Position numbers and translations under genes: made by a program
Part shown: positions 27,802 to 43,098 of the stretch, piece after piece
How positions within the stretch are numbered: position 1 is the first letter of the stretch
Layout of the letters: every line of letters starts with the position of its first letter
Notes under the pieces: generated by a model
The model's input: only the letters and a program-made list of their open reading frames with translations
The model's database searches: none
Told to the model about the DNA's origin: nothing
Source: Edaphobacter bradus
Lineage (GTDB): Bacteria; Acidobacteriota; Terriglobia; Terriglobales; Acidobacteriaceae
Assembly: GCF_025685645.1 (NCBI RefSeq)
Contig: NZ_JAGSYF010000001.1
Location: 186,001 to 250,000, forward strand
Length of the DNA: 64,000 bases
Direction: 5' to 3'

Positions 27802-28734
27802 CTACTGCCGCAGCCACACACCCCGAATCAAGTGGTCCGAGTGTTTATGCAGAATCAGATCGGCGCGTTGGCGTGTCGGCTGAATGTTCTCTCTCAGGTT
27901 AGGCAGATTGATCTCCCGCCATATCCTCAGGGCAGTCTGTACGGCCTCTTCCCTCGGTAGCTCGCGATAGCGGTAGAAGTACGAGTGAGGATTCTGGAAG
28001 GCCGTGTGCTGAAGAAGCAGGAACCGCTCGACGTACCACCGCTCGATGTCCGTCTCCTCCGCGTCGAGATACACCGAAAAATCGAAGAAGTCCGACGCAA
28101 TCACGGAAGCTCCATGCGGAGCCTGAAGCACATTGAGCCCCTCGAAGATCAGAATGTCCGGCCGCCTCACGATCTGCCGCTCGCCGGAGACGATATCGTA
28201 TGTCAGGTGCGAATAGACCGGCGCCTCGACCACCTCGTCGCCCGCCTTCACCGCATGCAGAAAATTCAGCAGGTTGCGAATGTCATAGCTCTCCGGAAAC
28301 CCCTTGCGCTTCATCAGGCTCTTCTCTTCAAGAACTGCATTGGGGAAGAGAAAGCCGTCAGTCGTCACCAGCGCAACCTTGGGCCGCTCGGGCCACCGTG
28401 ACAGAAGCGCCTGCAGTACGCGGGCGAAGGTGCTCTTGCCCACCGCCACGCTGCCCCCAATTGCAATCACAAAAGGAGAATGGATCGCCTGCCATCCCAG
28501 AAACTCGTTCTGGGCTTCAACAAGCCCATGCGCGGCCTTTACATGAAGCGAGAGATACCGCGACAGCGGAAGATACATCTCGGCAACTTCCGTCAGCGAG
28601 AGCCCGTCGTGCAGCCCACGCAGCGCGGCAACGTCCTGGTCCGAGAGAGACATCGGAGTGTTGGCCCGCAGCGCTGTCCACTCTTCCCGGCTGAAGTATC
28701 GAAAGGGGCTGGTAGCGTTCCCGATGGCGGTCAT
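27802..28734 (-). CDS. coaA: Type I pantothenate kinase
   Basis: CoaA phosphorylates pantothenate, the committed step of CoA synthesis. The 310-residue protein shows [20 protein letters not shown] (P-loop, about residue 95), [44 protein letters not shown] and FEGLNVLQ, all diagnostic of the prokaryotic type I enzyme. The N-terminal [19 protein letters not shown] is also family-typical. A TAGATT box ends 9 nt before the ATG, in keeping with leaderless starts seen for other housekeeping genes here. The iron operon ends 12 nt upstream on the same strand, so read-through is possible. Confidence 0.95.
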
Positions 28735-28746
28735 GGACGAATCAAT

Positions 28747-29490
28747 CTACCGACGCAGTGTAACAACTGGCCCGCCCACTGGGTGGCAGAAGACCTTGCC
28801 ATGGCTTAGTGCAATCTTCCGCTGCGCCAGCGCCGCCATCTCCGGATCATGCGTCACAATCACAATTGTATGGCCCTGCGCGTGAAGGTTCTTCAGCAGG
28901 TCCGCGACGATCGTCTGGTTGGCCGCGTCCAGATTCCCTGTAGGCTCATCGGCCAGCAGAATCGGCGGATTGTTGATGAGCGCCCGCGCGATGCACACCC
29001 GCTGCTGCTCGCCTCCGGAAAGCTCGCTTGGCAGATGCTCTGCCCGCTCGGCCAGCCCCACGCGCTCCAGCGCCGCCCTTGCCTCTGCCTCGTCCGTCAT
29101 CGAGTGGAAGTACTGCGCCAGCATCACATTCTCAAGAGCAGACAAATAGGGAATCAGATGAAACTGCTGGAAGATAAATCCGATCTTGTCCGCGCGAAAC
29201 CGGTCCAACTCCGTCGCCGACATCGCTGCCACATCCGCGCCGTCAATGTACAACTGTCCTTCAGTCGGCCGGTCGAGGCAGCCGATCAGATTGACGAGCG
29301 TGCTCTTGCCCGAGCCCGAAGGCCCCGTAATCGCGACCCACTCGCCCGCCACAATCGAAAACGAGGCATGGTCGAGCGCTCGCACGACGCCCGCGTGGCC
29401 CGTATACTCCCGGGTCACACCATGCAGCGCAATCACCGCGCAGCCGGGCCGCGTCTCCAGATCGATCGGATTTTCCCTCACCGCATCCAT
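28747..29490 (-). CDS. ABC transporter ATP-binding protein of the FTR1 iron operon
   Basis: The 247-residue ATPase is of the MacB/LolD type: [21 protein letters not shown] (Walker A), Q-loop [18 protein letters not shown], signature [19 protein letters not shown], Walker [13 protein letters not shown] and H-loop IVIVTHDP. It is the last gene of a four-gene operon with two FtsX-type permeases and an FTR1-DUF2318 protein, separated from the upstream permease by 4 nt. By analogy with FTR1/P19-linked ABC sets it would energise the membrane complex; whether it moves iron, a lipoprotein or a chaperone is unknown. Confidence 0.9.
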
Positions 29491-29494
29491 TCTC

Positions 29495-30604
29495 TCACTC
29501 GCCCTTCAGCAGCGCCGCCGGCTGCAATCCGCGCAGTACCCGCAGCGGAAACAGCGACGCCATCACCGCAATCAGCACATTCAGCAGCAGCACCAGCGGC
29601 AAAACCCGCAGCGTGGGCAGGGAAGAGGTATGGAAGTTCAACTGGCTGATCCCCCACGCCGCCGCGGAGCCAACTGCAAAACCCGCCGCCACTCCCGCCA
29701 GCGCCAGCACCAGCGCCTCCAGCAGAAACATCGCCATCAACTGCATCTGCGACCCACCCAGCGCCTTCATCAACGCAAAGTCCCGTCGCCTCTCAAGCAC
29801 GCTTGCCGACAAAGTCGCCAGCACGCTCACCGCGACCGTCAGCGCAATCAGCAACACCGCTCCGTACATCAGCGCATGCGTCTTATCGACGATCCGCGAC
29901 TCGCCCTCGACAAGCTGCCGAACCGCATCCACCTTCATCTCCGGCAGCGCCGCATGCAGCCGCGCCATCGTGGCTTCAACCTGCGCCGCTCCACCCGGAA
30001 CCTGCACCTCAATCACGCTCGGCCCCGCACCGGTCCACGCCGTGAACGCTGCCATCGGCATATAAATCCGGCTGTCCTCGTCGCTTCCCGTCCGCAGACG
30101 CCCCCTGCCATGCAACGTGAGCGGCTTGTCCGCATAGGTGAGCGTCACGGCCTTCTCATCCGCGACAAACTCCGCTGCCCGCTGTCCCAGCAGCGCCGCG
30201 TCCGCATCGCTGGCTGAAGGCCACGCATCCACCTGCCACCACGCGTCGAGCTTCTTCACTGCGTCGAAGTCCGTCCCCGCGACAACAACAGAAGTCCCGC
30301 GGTCCGTCGTCGCCACCGCATAGCCAAACTCCGCCGCCAGGGCATCGCTTCCCGCAGCGCTCTTCACACGGGCCAGCGCATCCGCCGGCAATCCCTTGCC
30401 GTCGCTCGGAGCCGTCACCACCACGTTTGCCCCAAAGCTCCGGAACTCTTTGTGCAGCTTCGCATCGAGATCGGCATACAGCGTCAGCAATGCCGTCGCC
30501 ACCGCAGCCGAAACCGTCATCGCCACCAGCGCAGACAGGCTCCTCGCTCGCCGATGCACCAGCGACCGCCGCAGAATCGCCGCAAACCCCAGCCGCGTGC
30601 TCAT
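29495..30604 (-). CDS. FtsX-type ABC permease, iron operon
   Basis: The 369-residue permease has an N-terminal membrane span (ARSLSALVAMTVSAAVATALL), a large periplasmic MacB-like domain (FRSFGANVVVTAPSDGKGLP, TAWTGAGPSVIEVQVPGG) and three C-terminal spans with the FtsX signature RRDFALMKALGGSQMQLMAMFLLEALVLALAG. The chosen ATG (30604) overlaps the stop of the preceding permease as ATGA; longer in-frame starts upstream run through that gene. Its partner permease is a paralogue, so the pair probably forms a heterodimer. Confidence 0.87.
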   Translation of the reverse strand: MSTRLGFAAILRRSLVHRRARSLSALVAMTVSAAVATALLTLYADLDAKLHKEFRSFGANVVVTAPSDGKGLPADALARVKSAAGSDALAAEFGYAVATTDRGTSVVVAGTDFDAVKKLDAWWQVDAWPSASDADAALLGQRAAEFVADEKAVTLTYADKPLTLHGRGRLRTGSDEDSRIYMPMAAFTAWTGAGPSVIEVQVPGGAAQVEATMARLHAALPEMKVDAVRQLVEGESRIVDKTHALMYGAVLLIALTVAVSVLATLSASVLERRRDFALMKALGGSQMQLMAMFLLEALVLALAGVAAGFAVGSAAAWGISQLNFHTSSLPTLRVLPLVLLLNVLIAVMASLFPLRVLRGLQPAALLKGE

Positions 30605-39068: not shown

Positions 39069-39725
39069 TCAGGCAGACCTCATCTCGATCAGGTCGCCGG
39101 CCTTTGCAGCCGCCTCAGCCAGAACTCGGTGATGGATGGTAAACAGCGCAAGCTCCAGCCGGTCTGAGACGCCGGTCTTATCGTAGATGCCGCGAAGATA
39201 GTTCTTGATGACCTGCTCCTTGGTGCAGAGTTGCAGCGCGATCTCCTTGTTCTTGCAGCCCTGCACGATCAGGGCGACGATCTGCATCTCCTTCGGAGTC
39301 AGCCTGGCGCGCACACGAGCGCCGACGTTGTCCGAGGCACGGATCGTCGTTACATTGGAGCGCTGCACATACCGCTCTCCGCGAGCCACCAGCCGCACGC
39401 ACTCCAGCAGATCGGCCCCGCTCGCGTTCCGCTGCATAACGCCGGCCAACTGTTGCGCCGTCCCGTCTGGGAGCGGCTCGGAGTTCTCCGTGACGAGTAC
39501 GACATGGCTGCCGAGGCTCTCTGCCTTCGAGGCCAGCGCAGGGACATCGGGTTTCAGGCTTGAGCCGACGATCACTATTGAGCCTCGCAGCCCTTCAACT
39601 GCAGTCCAGAGCTTTGCCAGGTCCTCGCATTGCGCAACGATGCGCATGTCGTCCTCCAGTGCCAGCACGCGCGCCGCGCCGGCCCGGAAGATCGTCTGAT
39701 TGTCCGCCAGAATGAGTCGGTTCAT
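39069..39725 (-). CDS. LuxR/NarL-type regulator with a degenerate receiver domain
   Basis: The C-terminal helix-turn-helix is clear: RARLTPKEMQIVALIVQGCKNKEIA...VIKNYLRGIYDKTGVSDRLEL (about residues 140-190). The N-terminal half has a receiver-like pattern (LILADNQTIFRAGAARVLAL, then IVIVGSSLKPDVP). But the phosphoacceptor Asp expected before the SSLKP turn is Gly/Ser, and the acid pair reads ADN. The conserved Lys after the last strand is not visible either. I infer a phosphorylation-independent pseudo-receiver. It is divergent from the receiver-TrxR fusion gene with 240 nt between them, so it may control that module. Confidence 0.82.
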   Translation of the reverse strand: MNRLILADNQTIFRAGAARVLALEDDMRIVAQCEDLAKLWTAVEGLRGSIVIVGSSLKPDVPALASKAESLGSHVVLVTENSEPLPDGTAQQLAGVMQRNASGADLLECVRLVARGERYVQRSNVTTIRASDNVGARVRARLTPKEMQIVALIVQGCKNKEIALQLCTKEQVIKNYLRGIYDKTGVSDRLELALFTIHHRVLAEAAAKAGDLIEMRSA

Positions 39726-39965
39726 ATCCCTCGTACGTATCTCCTGCGGCGGGATTCTGTTGCCCGCACTCTTCTCATCGGCAGAGAGTGGCGGACGATG
39801 TGGCCTGTCTCAAATTCGGACAAAGTAACGCCATGATACCTGCTGCCCAGAGCCAAGAACATCAATAGCTTACGCAGCTTTGCTTTTTTGAACCCTTGGG
39901 GTTTCGGGAATAATCCAATCTTACGCGGATGTGTCTTTTACACGTTCGCGAAGTATAACAAGGGT

Positions 39966-41612
39966 ATGCCGAAGCCCATCTTACTTGCTGTTGACGACGA
40001 CACCAGCGTCCTTGAAGCCGTGGTCCAGGATCTCCGCCGACACTACGGACAGGACTACCGCATCCTGCGTGCCGCCTCGGGCGGGGCTGCTCTGGACATC
40101 TGCCGCCAACTCAAAGAGCGTAACGACATCGTCGCTCTCTTCCTCTCAGACCAGCGCATGCCAGGCATGACCGGCGTCGACTTTCTTGAGCAGGCGATCA
40201 AGATCTATCCCGAGGCCAAACGCGTCCTGCTGACGGCCTATGCAGACACAGAGGCCGCCATCCGGGCGATCAACGCAGCCAAGATCCACTACTACCTCAA
40301 CAAACCATGGGATCCGCCGGAGGAAAAGCTGTATCCAGTCCTCGACGACCTTCTTGAGGCGTGGAAGCGGGGCTATAAACCTCCCTTTGAAGGCATTCGG
40401 GTGGTTGGCACACGCTGGTCCTCTACCGACCATGCTGTCCGCGAGTTCCTGTCCCGCAATCGCATTCCCTACCTGTGGCTGAACCCTGAACAGCATCCTG
40501 AGGCCGTTGACCTCCTGAAGGGAAAAGGTCTCGATGATACGCGGCTTCCCGTTGTGATCTTCGGCGACGGCACCGCGCTCGTTCAGCCCTCATCGAACGA
40601 TCTTGCGACCAAGCTCGGCATGCCCAGACAGGCCCAGCAGAAGTTCTACGACGTCGTGATTGTGGGCGCTGGCCCGGCAGGTCTGGCAGCAGGCGTCTAT
40701 GCGGCCTCCGAAGGCCTGAGCACTCTGATCGTCGAAGGCGAGGCTGTCGGCGGCCAGGCTGGTTCCTCTTCGCGGATTGAGAACTACCTCGGCTTTCCTC
40801 AGGGGCTTAGCGGCGCTCAGCTTGCCGATCGCGCTTATATTCAGGCGCAGCGGCTCGGGGCGGAGTTTCTGGCACAACACGTCACCTTTATCCGCCGCGA
40901 CAACCAGTACCAGATCGTTCGTATGGCGGATGACCAGGAGATTACCTGCCACGTCTGCCTCATTGCGACTGGGGTCGCTTACTGCAAGCTCGACGTCCCC
41001 GGTGCAGATCAGCTGGCGGGAGCCGGCGTCTACTACGGCGCGGCGCTAGCCGAGGCGATCTCCTGTGCCGATGAGATCGTCTACATCGTCGGAGGCGCCA
41101 ACTCCGCAGGGCAGGCTGCGATGCACTTCGCCCGCTACGCCAACAAGGTCCACATGCTGGTTCGCGGCGATTCGCTGACGAAGAGCATGTCAAAGTACCT
41201 CATCGACCAGATTGCAGCCACGCCCAATATCATCGTCGAGACCTGCTCGGAGATTACCTCGATGTGTGGAAACAGCCATCTCGAGAGCCTGACCCTCAAG
41301 ACTCCAAAGGGCGAGGAGACGCGACCTGCCTCTTCCGTGTTTATCTTCATCGGAGCTGCTCCCAAGACAGACTGGCTCCCGAAGGAGATCGCCGTTGATG
41401 GTAGGGGATTCATCCTTGCGGGACCCGACCTCAAAACCAAGGCTCCCGCGGCATGGAAGCTCGACCGCGATCCATACCTTCTTGAGACGAGCGTCCCCGG
41501 TGTCTTTGTCGCCGGAGACGTTCGCTACAACTCCGTCAAGCGATGTGCCTCAGCCGTTGGCGAAGGCTCCATCGCCATTCAGTTTGTGCATCAGTATTTA
41601 GCGACACTTTGA
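39966..41612 (+). CDS. Fusion of response-regulator receiver, glutaredoxin-fold and thioredoxin-reductase-like domains
   Basis: The 548-residue protein is built of three parts. Residues 1-125 are a canonical receiver (AVDDD, phosphoacceptor Asp62 in LSDQRMPGMTG, Lys113 in YLNKPW). Residues about 143-215 look like a glutaredoxin fold (IRVVGTRWSSTDHAVREFL...LPVVIFGDGTALVQPS) in which the usual CxxC is Ser-Ser-Thr-Asp. Residues 225-548 are an FAD/NADPH pyridine-nucleotide oxidoreductase of the TrxB type (VIVGAGPAGLAAG, IVGGANSAGQAAMHFA, GVFVAGDVR), but the redox CxxC is missing (GAGVYYGAALAEA). So redox activity, if any, must use FAD without a disulfide. The ATG at 39966 follows AAGGG. The partner kinase starts 22 nt later. 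Confidence 0.88.
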   Translation: MPKPILLAVDDDTSVLEAVVQDLRRHYGQDYRILRAASGGAALDICRQLKERNDIVALFLSDQRMPGMTGVDFLEQAIKIYPEAKRVLLTAYADTEAAIRAINAAKIHYYLNKPWDPPEEKLYPVLDDLLEAWKRGYKPPFEGIRVVGTRWSSTDHAVREFLSRNRIPYLWLNPEQHPEAVDLLKGKGLDDTRLPVVIFGDGTALVQPSSNDLATKLGMPRQAQQKFYDVVIVGAGPAGLAAGVYAASEGLSTLIVEGEAVGGQAGSSSRIENYLGFPQGLSGAQLADRAYIQAQRLGAEFLAQHVTFIRRDNQYQIVRMADDQEITCHVCLIATGVAYCKLDVPGADQLAGAGVYYGAALAEAISCADEIVYIVGGANSAGQAAMHFARYANKVHMLVRGDSLTKSMSKYLIDQIAATPNIIVETCSEITSMCGNSHLESLTLKTPKGEETRPASSVFIFIGAAPKTDWLPKEIAVDGRGFILAGPDLKTKAPAAWKLDRDPYLLETSVPGVFVAGDVRYNSVKRCASAVGEGSIAIQFVHQYLATL

Positions 41613-41634
41613 AAGGCATTCCTGCGAGACAACA

Positions 41635-43098
41635 ATGAGCGAGCAAACCCAGATCGTCCCCAGCCAGCAGATCAACGAAGCGCTCTTTGCGAAGCTGCGT
41701 AAAGCTCCCATTCTGTCTTCGGTCAAAGACGATGACATTCGCTGTCTTAAGGGTGTCGAAGAGGTTTGCCTTGAGGCGGGCGATTTCCTCGCCCGTCAGG
41801 GTGAGGCCGCTCACTACTTCTGGATACTTCTTGAAGGCGACATTACGTTTTATCAGACAACTCCGGAGGGCGAGGAGATAGCGCTTACCTCCGTCAGCGC
41901 TGGCCATTCCTTTGGGGAGGTCCCTTTGCTCGCCAACATTCCGAACGCTGCCAGCCTGCGTGCAGCAGGCCATTGCTGTCTCGCGCAATTGGATGAAGAT
42001 TCCTTCTGGAATCTCATGACCACCTGTCCGGGGGCACGCACGGCAATTCTGAGCAACATGGCCAGCCGTATTCAGAAGCTGCAGAGCTTCACGGTGCAGA
42101 AGGAGAAGATGGCCTCTCTCGGCACGCTTGCGGCAGGTCTCATGCACGAGCTCAATAACCCCGGTACTGCCGCGCGCCGCGCCGCCTCGCAGCTTCGTGA
42201 GAATCTGCTCCGGCTACACGAAATCTCCGCTCGCTTCAGCAAGACAGAGATGACGCATGAGCAGAAGGAGTGCATGTTTGACCTTCAGGAGCATGCCCTA
42301 GCTGGAGGCCATCCTGTTCTCATGAACTCCATCGAGCAGAGCGATGCCGAAGAGGCGTTGGCCGAGTGGCTCGAAGCACACAACATTGAGAATGCATGGA
42401 AGATGGCTCCGACGCTGGTCTCCGCAGGGCTCAGTGCGCACCAGCTCGAGTGCGCCCAGCATGCGTTTTCCGGCTCCACGCTCTCCGACGCTCTCAGCTG
42501 GCTTGACGCTCTCGTCTCCAGCATGCAGCTCGTCGGCACCATCGAAGAGAGCATTGGCCGCGTCTCCGACCTCATCTACGCCGTTAAGTCTTACGCCTAT
42601 GAGGGGAAAGCCAAAAACCAGGCCGTCGACGTAAACAAGAGCATCCACGCCACGCTCGTCATTCTCGGCCACAAGCTGCGCGAGAAGGAGATTGTGCTCG
42701 AAAAGGACTTTGCGGCCGACCTTCCTCCGCTTCTCAGCGACGGCACCGGGCTCAACCAGATCTGGACCAACCTGCTTGATAATGCCATCGACGCTCTTCC
42801 TCAGGGCGGCCGCATCGGCGTACGCACCTGGGCAGAGAAGGCGTCCGCCGAACCTGCCCATTCGCGTACGGACATATGCATCAGCATCAGCGACAACGGC
42901 CTAGGCATCCCCATCGAGTGCCAGGCGCATATCTTCGATCCTTTCTATACAACCAAGCCCATCGGCGTTGGCACCGGCATCGGACTCGGAATCGTCCATC
43001 GCATCGTCGAGCAGTACCACGGCTCCATTCACTTCTCTTCCATGCCGGGGAATACGGAGTTCGTCGTTCGCATCCCCAGCGCCACACCAGAAAAGTAG
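41635..43098 (+). CDS. Histidine kinase with cyclic-nucleotide-binding sensor domain
   Basis: Residues 20-135 form a cNMP-binding (CRP-like) domain: [20 protein letters not shown] and [20 protein letters not shown], close to the cyclic-nucleotide phosphate-binding cassette. A HisKA-type dimerisation helix carries the phosphorylated His171 in [13 protein letters not shown]. The ATPase domain has an N box ([17 protein letters not shown]), DNGLGIPIE (G1), and [12 protein letters not shown] (G2). No membrane segment is visible, so it should be cytoplasmic. It directly follows the receiver-TrxR fusion and probably phosphorylates it. Which nucleotide or redox ligand is sensed is not clear. Confidence 0.9.

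What the first reader, a model, noticed from the sequence alone, without database searches (positions are those of the whole stretch)
39069..43098. Redox-signalling module: receiver + cysteine-less glutaredoxin fold + TrxR-like fusion with a cNMP-domain histidine kinase
Seen: one protein joins a canonical receiver (Asp62, Lys113), a Grx-like domain with WSSTD in place of CxxC, and a TrxB-type FAD/NADPH domain lacking the redox CxxC. The next gene, 22 nt away, is a soluble kinase with a CRP-like cyclic-nucleotide domain. A LuxR-type regulator with a degenerate receiver is divergent with 240 nt between. Family knowledge says receivers and TrxR-like domains rarely combine. Inference: phosphorylation may control NADPH-dependent FAD chemistry, or FAD redox state may feed back on the kinase; the missing cysteines mean it is not ordinary thioredoxin reduction.
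Basis: partly seen in the sequence, partly recalled or inferred. Interest (0 to 1): 0.65.

Follow-up and report, generated by a model that had tools for sequence, protein, structure and literature searches.

The report
Kinase-controlled thioredoxin-reductase-like flavoenzyme module
Three neighbouring genes encode a signalling kinase, a phosphorylation-receiver fused to a flavin enzyme that has lost its usual active-site cysteines, and a regulator; the kinase-enzyme pair recurs in many bacterial phyla but its job is unknown.

Summary
Window 39966-41612 encodes receiver + glutaredoxin-fold domain + TrxB-like domain (RR-Grx-TR), with the CxxC missing at both canonical sites. A soluble CRP-domain histidine kinase (HK) follows after 22 nt; a LuxR-type gene is divergent. 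The 'rarely combine' premise is wrong: the full fusion is in 30 of 247 Acidobacteriota, 37 of 296 Actinomycetota and 32 of 247 Bacteroidota genomes, and REC-TrxR fusions were already named in print (PMC5847659).

What I add: the HK is the genetic partner in nine phyla by record title. All 148 proteins with an HK within 3 kb keep Asp62, Thr90 and Lys113; of 35 without, 14 keep Asp62. All inferred receiver changes fall on HK-less branches, although HK changed only about four times. A ubiquitin-type zinc-finger (zf-UBP) gene adjoins 19 of 48 fully flanked pairs and is fused to an HK once. In 20 of 21 same-genus spacers a palindrome lies between LuxR and fusion; it occurs once in the window's genome.

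Best reading: a two-component system whose output is flavin chemistry or partner binding rather than transcription. Direction of control, ligand and electron acceptor are inferred, not shown. New variant of a known kind.

The parts
39069..39725 (-). LuxR/NarL-type regulator: HTH plus an aspartate-less receiver-like N-terminus
   Evidence: GerE E 2.8e-10, no Response_reg match; HTH near-invariant in 14 rows; no Asp, by eye, where the phospho-acceptor is expected
39806..39822 (.). 17-bp imperfect palindrome TGTCTCAAATTCGGACA, candidate operator between the divergent genes
   Evidence: core invariant in the 15 spacers aligned; 5 of the 6 same-genus spacers not used to derive it; 0 of 7 spacers outside the genus; only site in the own 4.75-Mb genome
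39966..41612 (+). RR-Grx-TR fusion, 548 aa
   Evidence: the 20 same-genus relatives with an intact 5' end begin with ATG at the same place
39966..40328 (+). canonical receiver domain (D10-D12, D62, T90, K113)
40380..40625 (+). glutaredoxin-fold domain without CxxC (WSSTD at 151-155)
40644..41609 (+). TrxB-like FAD/NAD(P)H domain without CxxC (A359, A362)
41635..43098 (+). soluble histidine kinase, 487 aa
   Evidence: no hydrophobic stretch of transmembrane strength
41767..42021 (+). CRP-like (cNMP_binding) domain of the kinase
   Evidence: E 8.3e-18, residues 45-129
42145..42147 (+). phospho-acceptor His171 codon; the two DHp helices (132-203, 280-322) are split by a helical insert (about 208-277)
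   Evidence: (H171 invariant in 35 of 35 rows)
42739..43080 (+). HATPase_c catalytic domain of the kinase

Best explanation
This is a two-component system with an oxidoreductase-type output. The CRP-like domain of the soluble kinase senses an unidentified cytoplasmic signal and sets autophosphorylation of His171. The phosphoryl group goes to Asp62 of the receiver. The phosphorylated receiver changes how the cysteine-less Grx domain and the FAD/NAD(P)H domain are arranged, switching electron flow from NAD(P)H through FAD to a separate partner that docks through the Grx domain, or switching the docking itself. In many lineages a small zf-UBP zinc-finger protein belongs to the same system. In this genus an Asp-less LuxR protein controls the locus through a local palindrome. 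Shown by sequence: anatomy, gene pairing, loss of both CxxC, receiver integrity tracking HK presence. Inferred: phosphotransfer, direction of control, electron acceptor, the role of zf-UBP, and LuxR binding to the palindrome.
For: An HK of this family lies beside the fusion in records of nine phyla (titles; gene calls in 33, 34; three of the nine rest on one MAG contig each). In Acidobacteriota all 30 genomes with a full-length RR-TR, plus G158, have the HK; 3 of the other 216 have a match, all partial. Of 195 RR-TR proteins (intact = acidic pair, D62 and K113): 148 intact with HK within 3 kb, 18 intact without, 28 degenerate without (one, L243, only cut by a contig edge), 1 'degenerate' with HK (L028, likewise cut). 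The 148 with HK keep D62, T90 and K113 without exception; in 35 without HK these are kept in 14, 5 and 16. All 12 parsimony changes of receiver integrity lie on HK-less branches, 31% of the tree length (5 losses there, 0 elsewhere, p 0.003). HK His171 is invariant in 35 of 35. FAD and NAD(P)H motif residues are among the invariant columns, and the model fits the FR-conformation TrxR 5mh4 (Z 35.2, rmsd 1.8) better than the two entries titled FO (rmsd 7.3 and 5.2). zf-UBP lies within 300 nt on the same strand in 19 of 48 fully flanked RR-HK loci; one HK carries it as a C-terminal domain.
Against: No phosphotransfer, cofactor or activity data exist here. HK presence changed only about four times on the tree, so the Fisher p (1.3e-20) is not phylogenetically independent; the independent-pairs test had 3 pairs (2 in the expected direction, 1 tie) and cannot reach significance. 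Eleven of the 35 HK-less proteins keep an intact site and may use an unlinked kinase or none. G158 keeps the HK although its TR gene lacks the receiver. L050 has an intact receiver and no HK within its flanks (4.0 and 7.0 kb), though its genome has two HKs elsewhere. One cyanobacterial fusion (L308) has a kinase of another kind next to it. The third Gly of the NAD(P)H motif is Ala in 109 of 148 HK-linked proteins, so NAD(P)H use is not certain. zf-UBP is absent from 29 of the 48 fully flanked RR-HK loci and is unlinked in the window's own genome.
Confidence: 0.55

Rival explanations
1. The signal runs backwards: the TR domain senses NAD(P)H or redox state through its flavin and, via the receiver, sets the kinase/phosphatase balance of the HK, whose real output is elsewhere.
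For: No internal redox cysteines, so the flavin could act as a sensor rather than a catalyst. The own genome has two further HK paralogues without a linked RR-TR. The LuxR gene is tightly linked in this genus.
Against: The LuxR receiver lacks the Asp, and the LuxR gene was seen beside the fusion only in part of the acidobacterial loci, so it cannot be the general output. No second protein matching this receiver profile recurs beside the pair (other receiver types were not profiled).
Confidence: 0.2
2. The TR domain is a catalytically dead scaffold: phosphorylation regulates binding (for example to the zf-UBP protein), and FAD is structural.
For: Neither canonical CxxC present in any of 227 rows; zf-UBP adjacency and one HK-UBP fusion.
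Against: FAD and NAD(P)H motif residues are among the most conserved columns; CxxC-less TrxR relatives such as FNR2 and Bdr, which appear among the fold matches, are active enzymes (recalled).
Confidence: 0.15
3. It is an ordinary thioredoxin/glutaredoxin reductase with an added receiver.
For: TIGR01292 TRX_reduct is the top NCBIfam match (212.9 bits).
Against: That score is below the curated cut-off of 343.45; no CxxC at either canonical site in any of 227 rows.
Confidence: 0.04

Closest known systems
REC-thioredoxin reductase fusions named in PMC5847659 ('Mycobacterium-like', also in two Heimdallarchaeota organisms)
   Same: Receiver combined with a thioredoxin-reductase domain; probably this family (two passages read; identity not checked)
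   Different: One line in a census; the two passages name no partner kinase, Grx domain, CxxC loss, zf-UBP or operator
Cyclic nucleotide-binding domain-containing thioredoxin-disulfide reductase (NCBI product name, NZ_CP022991.1)
   Same: Homologous CxxC-less Grx + TR halves; the window genome carries two (L172, L173)
   Different: The CRP-like domain sits directly on the enzyme; here it sits on a kinase and is linked to the enzyme by a receiver
Bacterial TrxB thioredoxin reductase
   Same: FAD/NAD(P)H fold, Z about 35
   Different: No CxxC; extra receiver and Grx domains
TrxR relatives FNR2 (8c16) and bacillithiol disulfide reductase Bdr/YpdA (7a7b)
   Same: Same fold (Z 27.9 and 27.1); that they too lack CxxC is recalled
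   Different: No receiver or Grx domain; their substrates are not known to apply here
Response regulators with enzymatic outputs (recalled: CheB, PleD, RpfG, PorX)
   Same: Receiver controlling an enzyme-like domain rather than DNA binding
   Different: Output here is an oxidoreductase fold
Thioredoxin as a docking station for response regulators (PMC9584953; search listing and start of abstract seen)
   Same: Precedent for a Trx-fold surface contacting receivers
   Different: Separate proteins there; here a Cys-less Grx domain lies in the same chain
Aspartate-less receivers (PMC4395418; search listing and start of abstract seen)
   Same: The LuxR partner lacks the phospho-acceptor Asp
   Different: No closer relation tested

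Membership tests
Two-component system | phospho-acceptor His in a DHp domain | tested here: met
   H171, N175 and P176 invariant in 35 of 35; HisKA only marginal in Pfam (E 0.045); DHp hairpin in the model, split by an insert
Two-component system | HATPase_c catalytic domain | tested here: met
   E 3.4e-23
Two-component system | receiver with acidic pair, Asp, Thr/Ser, Lys | tested here: met
   D10-12, D62, T90, K113
Two-component system | conserved HK-RR gene pairing | tested here: met
   HK within 3 kb in 149 of 195 RR-TR proteins
Two-component system | phosphotransfer | not testable with these tools
   needs purified proteins
Thioredoxin reductase (TrxB) | FAD/NAD(P)H pyridine nucleotide-disulphide oxidoreductase fold | tested here: met
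Thioredoxin reductase (TrxB) | redox CxxC in the NADPH domain | tested here: not met
   A359 and A362; no Cys in those columns in 227 of 227 rows
Thioredoxin reductase (TrxB) | NCBIfam TIGR01292 curated cut-off | tested here: not met
   212.9 against 343.45 bits
Glutaredoxin | Trx/Grx fold | tested here: met
   order of elements in the model; profile match to 2lqo E 3.3e-10; 16 of 32 members match PF00462, the window's none
Glutaredoxin | CxxC (or single-Cys CxxS) active site | tested here: not met
   WSSTD in the window; of 227 rows none has both Cys and 15 have one, 3 of them at the first position
TrxR-like ferredoxin/flavodoxin-NADP+ reductase | TrxR-like fold without CxxC | tested here: met
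TrxR-like ferredoxin/flavodoxin-NADP+ reductase | family C-terminal residue stacked on the flavin; ferredoxin reduction | not tested
   C-terminal features not compared; activity needs protein
Cyclic-nucleotide-binding protein | cNMP_binding fold | tested here: met
   PF00027 E 8.3e-18
Cyclic-nucleotide-binding protein | phosphate-binding Arg | tested here: inconclusive
   Asn in the window by eye, Arg in a few homologues; motif recalled
NarL/LuxR response regulator | GerE HTH | tested here: met
   E 2.8e-10
NarL/LuxR response regulator | phospho-acceptor Asp in receiver | tested here: not met
   absent by eye in 14 aligned rows; no Response_reg match

The most novel reading that the evidence does not exclude
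A widespread, uncharacterised signalling system in which a CRP-domain kinase uses phosphorylation to gate electron flow from NAD(P)H through a cysteine-less Grx-TrxR flavoprotein to the zinc-thiol cluster of a ubiquitin-type (UBP) zinc-finger protein: a direct link between two-component signalling and protein redox state, without transcription. The single-chain cNMP-Grx-TR enzymes would be the same circuit with sensor and output fused.
Probability: 0.15. Interest if true: 0.85.

Novelty: new variant of a known kind. Interest (0 to 1): 0.6.

Why it matters
If right, a receiver domain switches a flavin oxidoreductase directly, a two-component output for which my ten paper searches found only a census mention. 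The fusion is in about one in eight of the Acidobacteriota, Actinomycetota and Bacteroidota genomes sampled, so an unread redox circuit would be common. It also gives bacterial zf-UBP proteins, relatives of a eukaryotic ubiquitin-binding finger (recalled), a testable context. Phosphotransfer plus an NAD(P)H-FAD assay would settle the core question.

Tried and rejected
Rejected: chance or annotation artefact (conserved in 21 of 24 other same-genus genomes); ordinary thioredoxin reductase; rarity of the fusion.

Considered and dropped: Cys367 as an alternative redox centre; it is the only column with Cys in over 30% of rows (154 of 227), but other rows have Phe, Met, Tyr and so on. zf-UBP as a partner in this genome: its single UBP gene lies on another contig behind an NtrC-type regulator. 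Own HK paralogues: two, not next to any gene matching this family's profiles. The palindrome as a general operator: 0 of 7 spacers outside the genus and not L030 within it (two of the seven spacer ends, L140 and L142, were my estimates).

Weaknesses: one search counted only proteins with a detectable receiver, so receiver-less TRs (G158, L087) and a gene whose receiver and TR parts lie in separate frames (L258) were left out; L114, also frame-broken, was listed and left out of my counts. Identical proteins were counted once; 7 rows with short flanks and 5 with gaps at the acidic pair were dropped before the tree (195 to 183). The pattern for the palindrome was derived from 15 of 21 same-genus spacers, and all 10 genomes are among those 15, so there only its absence elsewhere informs; the reversed control pattern gave 2 hits in those 10 genomes, as many as the extra forward sites. 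Many survey loci have only 1.5 kb flanks. The whole-model fold search tested only residues 224-548, so the Grx assignment rests on the order of elements plus profiles. No chance control was run for zf-UBP adjacency. PMC9025218, a review of cyanobacterial TRs, did not mention the fusion in the passages read. Paper searches showed no account of the HK + RR-Grx-TR pair or the zf-UBP link; several lists were capped (40: 20 of 5,982; 76: 20 of 111; 96: 12 of 70; 97: 12 of 406), and beyond listings only the passages were read.
Full report
What is there. Three genes: a LuxR-type regulator (39069-39725, minus), a receiver + Grx-fold + TrxB-like fusion (39966-41612, plus) and a soluble kinase (41635-43098, plus). 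The host is an acidobacterium of class Terriglobia: a genome listed as 'same class' (G039) has a contig of 47,124 bases with the match at 28447-29682, the same length and place as in the record titled Terriglobia MAG Centralia_MAG_166 (L031 and L103).

Anatomy. The fusion model has mean pLDDT 91. Residues 144-216 run b-a-b-a-b-b-a, the Trx/Grx order. A profile of this domain (32 sequences) finds the glutaredoxin Rv3198.1 structure 2lqo at E 3.3e-10, with thioredoxin and glutaredoxin entries next; 16 of 32 members match Pfam Glutaredoxin singly, the window's does not. Both canonical CxxC sites are empty: none of 227 rows has a Cys in either TrxB CxxC column and none has both Cys of the Grx pair, while 15 have one of the two. 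The TR part fits FR-conformation thioredoxin reductase best (5mh4, Z 35.2, rmsd 1.8), against 7.3 and 5.2 A for the two listed entries titled FO (5mjk, 5w4c); FNR2 (8c16) and Bdr (7a7b) also appear. The kinase model has a CRP-like domain, a DHp hairpin split by a helical insert, and a catalytic domain.

Distribution. Genomes with a strong match (750 bits or more) were counted by hand from the place lists; each count includes the genome used as centre. Acidobacteriota: 30 of 247, plus G158 without the receiver and G265 with a degenerate one. Actinomycetota: 37 of 296, one of them cut by a contig end, with further weaker full-length matches. Bacteroidota: 32 of 247. Cyanobacteria: 8 of 194. Pseudomonadota: 1 of 299, the centre itself. 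Searches used a stricter E limit. Record titles add Verrucomicrobia, Chloroflexi (Sphaerobacter) and Gemmatimonadetes, one MAG contig each, and Deinococcus: nine phyla by title, each with at least one HK beside the fusion. MAG titles can be wrong; the Verrucomicrobia one is the listed homologue nearest to the window (68%). Among the 80 loci, which is a capped list, 40 have a strong canonical receiver; 38 of these have an HK of this family in the locus, one (L049) 2.5 kb away; L086 ends at a contig edge and L050 has none. In the plasmid collection I read six of the ten records with over 50% identity; in 6 of 6 the HK is the next gene downstream. Of the 8 cyanobacterial hits, 6 have a family HK in the stretch (one divergent), one has another kind of kinase, one (L050's genome) none.

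HK and receiver belong together. In the same 247 Acidobacteriota genomes, all 30 with the full fusion, plus G158, have the HK; G265 has none; 3 of the other 215 have a match, all partial. Over 195 proteins (intact = acidic pair, D62, K113; HK = within 3 kb): intact + HK 148, intact + no HK 18, degenerate + no HK 28, degenerate + HK 1. The last (L028) and one of the 28 (L243) are only cut by contig edges. Of the 18, seven lie in short stretches or at contig ends (L086, L199, L204, L215, L227, L228, L231), one is L050, and ten are proteins of the actinobacterial sample, in 8 of which Thr90 is Val or Ile. All 148 with HK have D62, T90 and K113. On a tree of the TR domain alone, HK presence changes 4 times (one clade of 32, plus three single rows), while receiver integrity changes 12 times, every time on HK-less branches. 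I read this as relaxed constraint after partner loss. It rests on few independent HK changes; the independent-pairs test had 3 pairs and no power.

More than one kinase. The window genome has three HKs of this family and one RR-Grx-TR, so several signals may converge on one enzyme (inference).

A third partner. A 90-120 aa zf-UBP protein lies within 300 nt on the same strand in 19 of 48 fully flanked RR-HK loci (15 Actinomycetota, 3 Bacteroidota, 1 Acidobacteriota), 1 of 25 HK-less RR-TR loci, 5 of 26 cNMP-TR loci and 2 of 4 others. One HK (L268) carries it as a C-terminal domain (Pfam E 3.6e-10). Six Cys and two His are invariant in all 39 aligned copies. zf-UBP is otherwise sparse: one gene in the window genome, matches in 2 of 14 control genomes. 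In the window genome it is not linked to the module.

Local regulation. I aligned 15 of the 21 same-genus spacers (own included); a 17-bp palindrome (39806-39822) has an invariant core in all 15. As an out-of-sample check, 5 of the 6 spacers left out match the full pattern and L030 does not; 0 of 7 spacers outside the genus match. The pattern occurs once in the window's genome and at this spacer in 10 of 10 genomes, with 2 further sites in all; the reversed control gave 2. So the site is genus-wide and nearly exclusive to this locus, and the neighbouring LuxR protein probably serves this locus alone. Its receiver lacks the phospho-acceptor Asp.

Relation to known systems. As a kind it is a two-component system with an enzyme-like output. 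The REC-thioredoxin reductase combination was already mentioned in a census (PMC5847659). The cNMP-Grx-TR proteins, two of which are in this genome, share the output half and carry a CRP-like domain directly; on the TR-domain tree they group apart from the RR forms, with low support (39). This suggests one output used in two wirings.

Verdict. Phosphotransfer from the HK to Asp62 is very likely (about 0.85). That this gates flavin chemistry or docking is the best guess (about 0.55 for the whole statement). Ligand, electron acceptor and direction are open.

Noticed in passing
L268:2325-3992, L041:9107-9460, L044:9137-9487, L067:8671-8946: zf-UBP zinc-finger genes next to, or fused to, the kinase or the TR enzyme in several phyla; all 39 aligned copies keep six Cys and two His.
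   Followed up: partly
L304:4028-5428 and L305:4039-5610 (own genome): Two further cNMP-kinase paralogues without a linked RR-TR (L305 near an IlvC-like ORF, by eye), suggesting several kinases for one output protein.
   Followed up: partly
L043:4484-9062, L049:11237-14149, L078:8647-11559, L311:889-3752: Loci with two kinases of the same family beside one RR-TR.
   Followed up: no
L039:9148-10323, L040:11334-12563, L309:7118-8299: Low temperature requirement protein A (LtrA) genes near the pair in cyanobacteria and Deinococcus.
   Followed up: no
L159:2297-4993: A family member keeps the kinase but its TR gene lacks the receiver; truncation or assembly join not resolved.
   Followed up: partly
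window 40947-40958: CHVC (Cys328-Cys331) on a beta strand of the RR-TR, outside the canonical CxxC site; 30 of 227 rows have some CxxC anywhere.
   Followed up: partly
L235-L266 (actinobacterial sample): A large group of kinase-less fusions with decaying receivers.
   Followed up: yes
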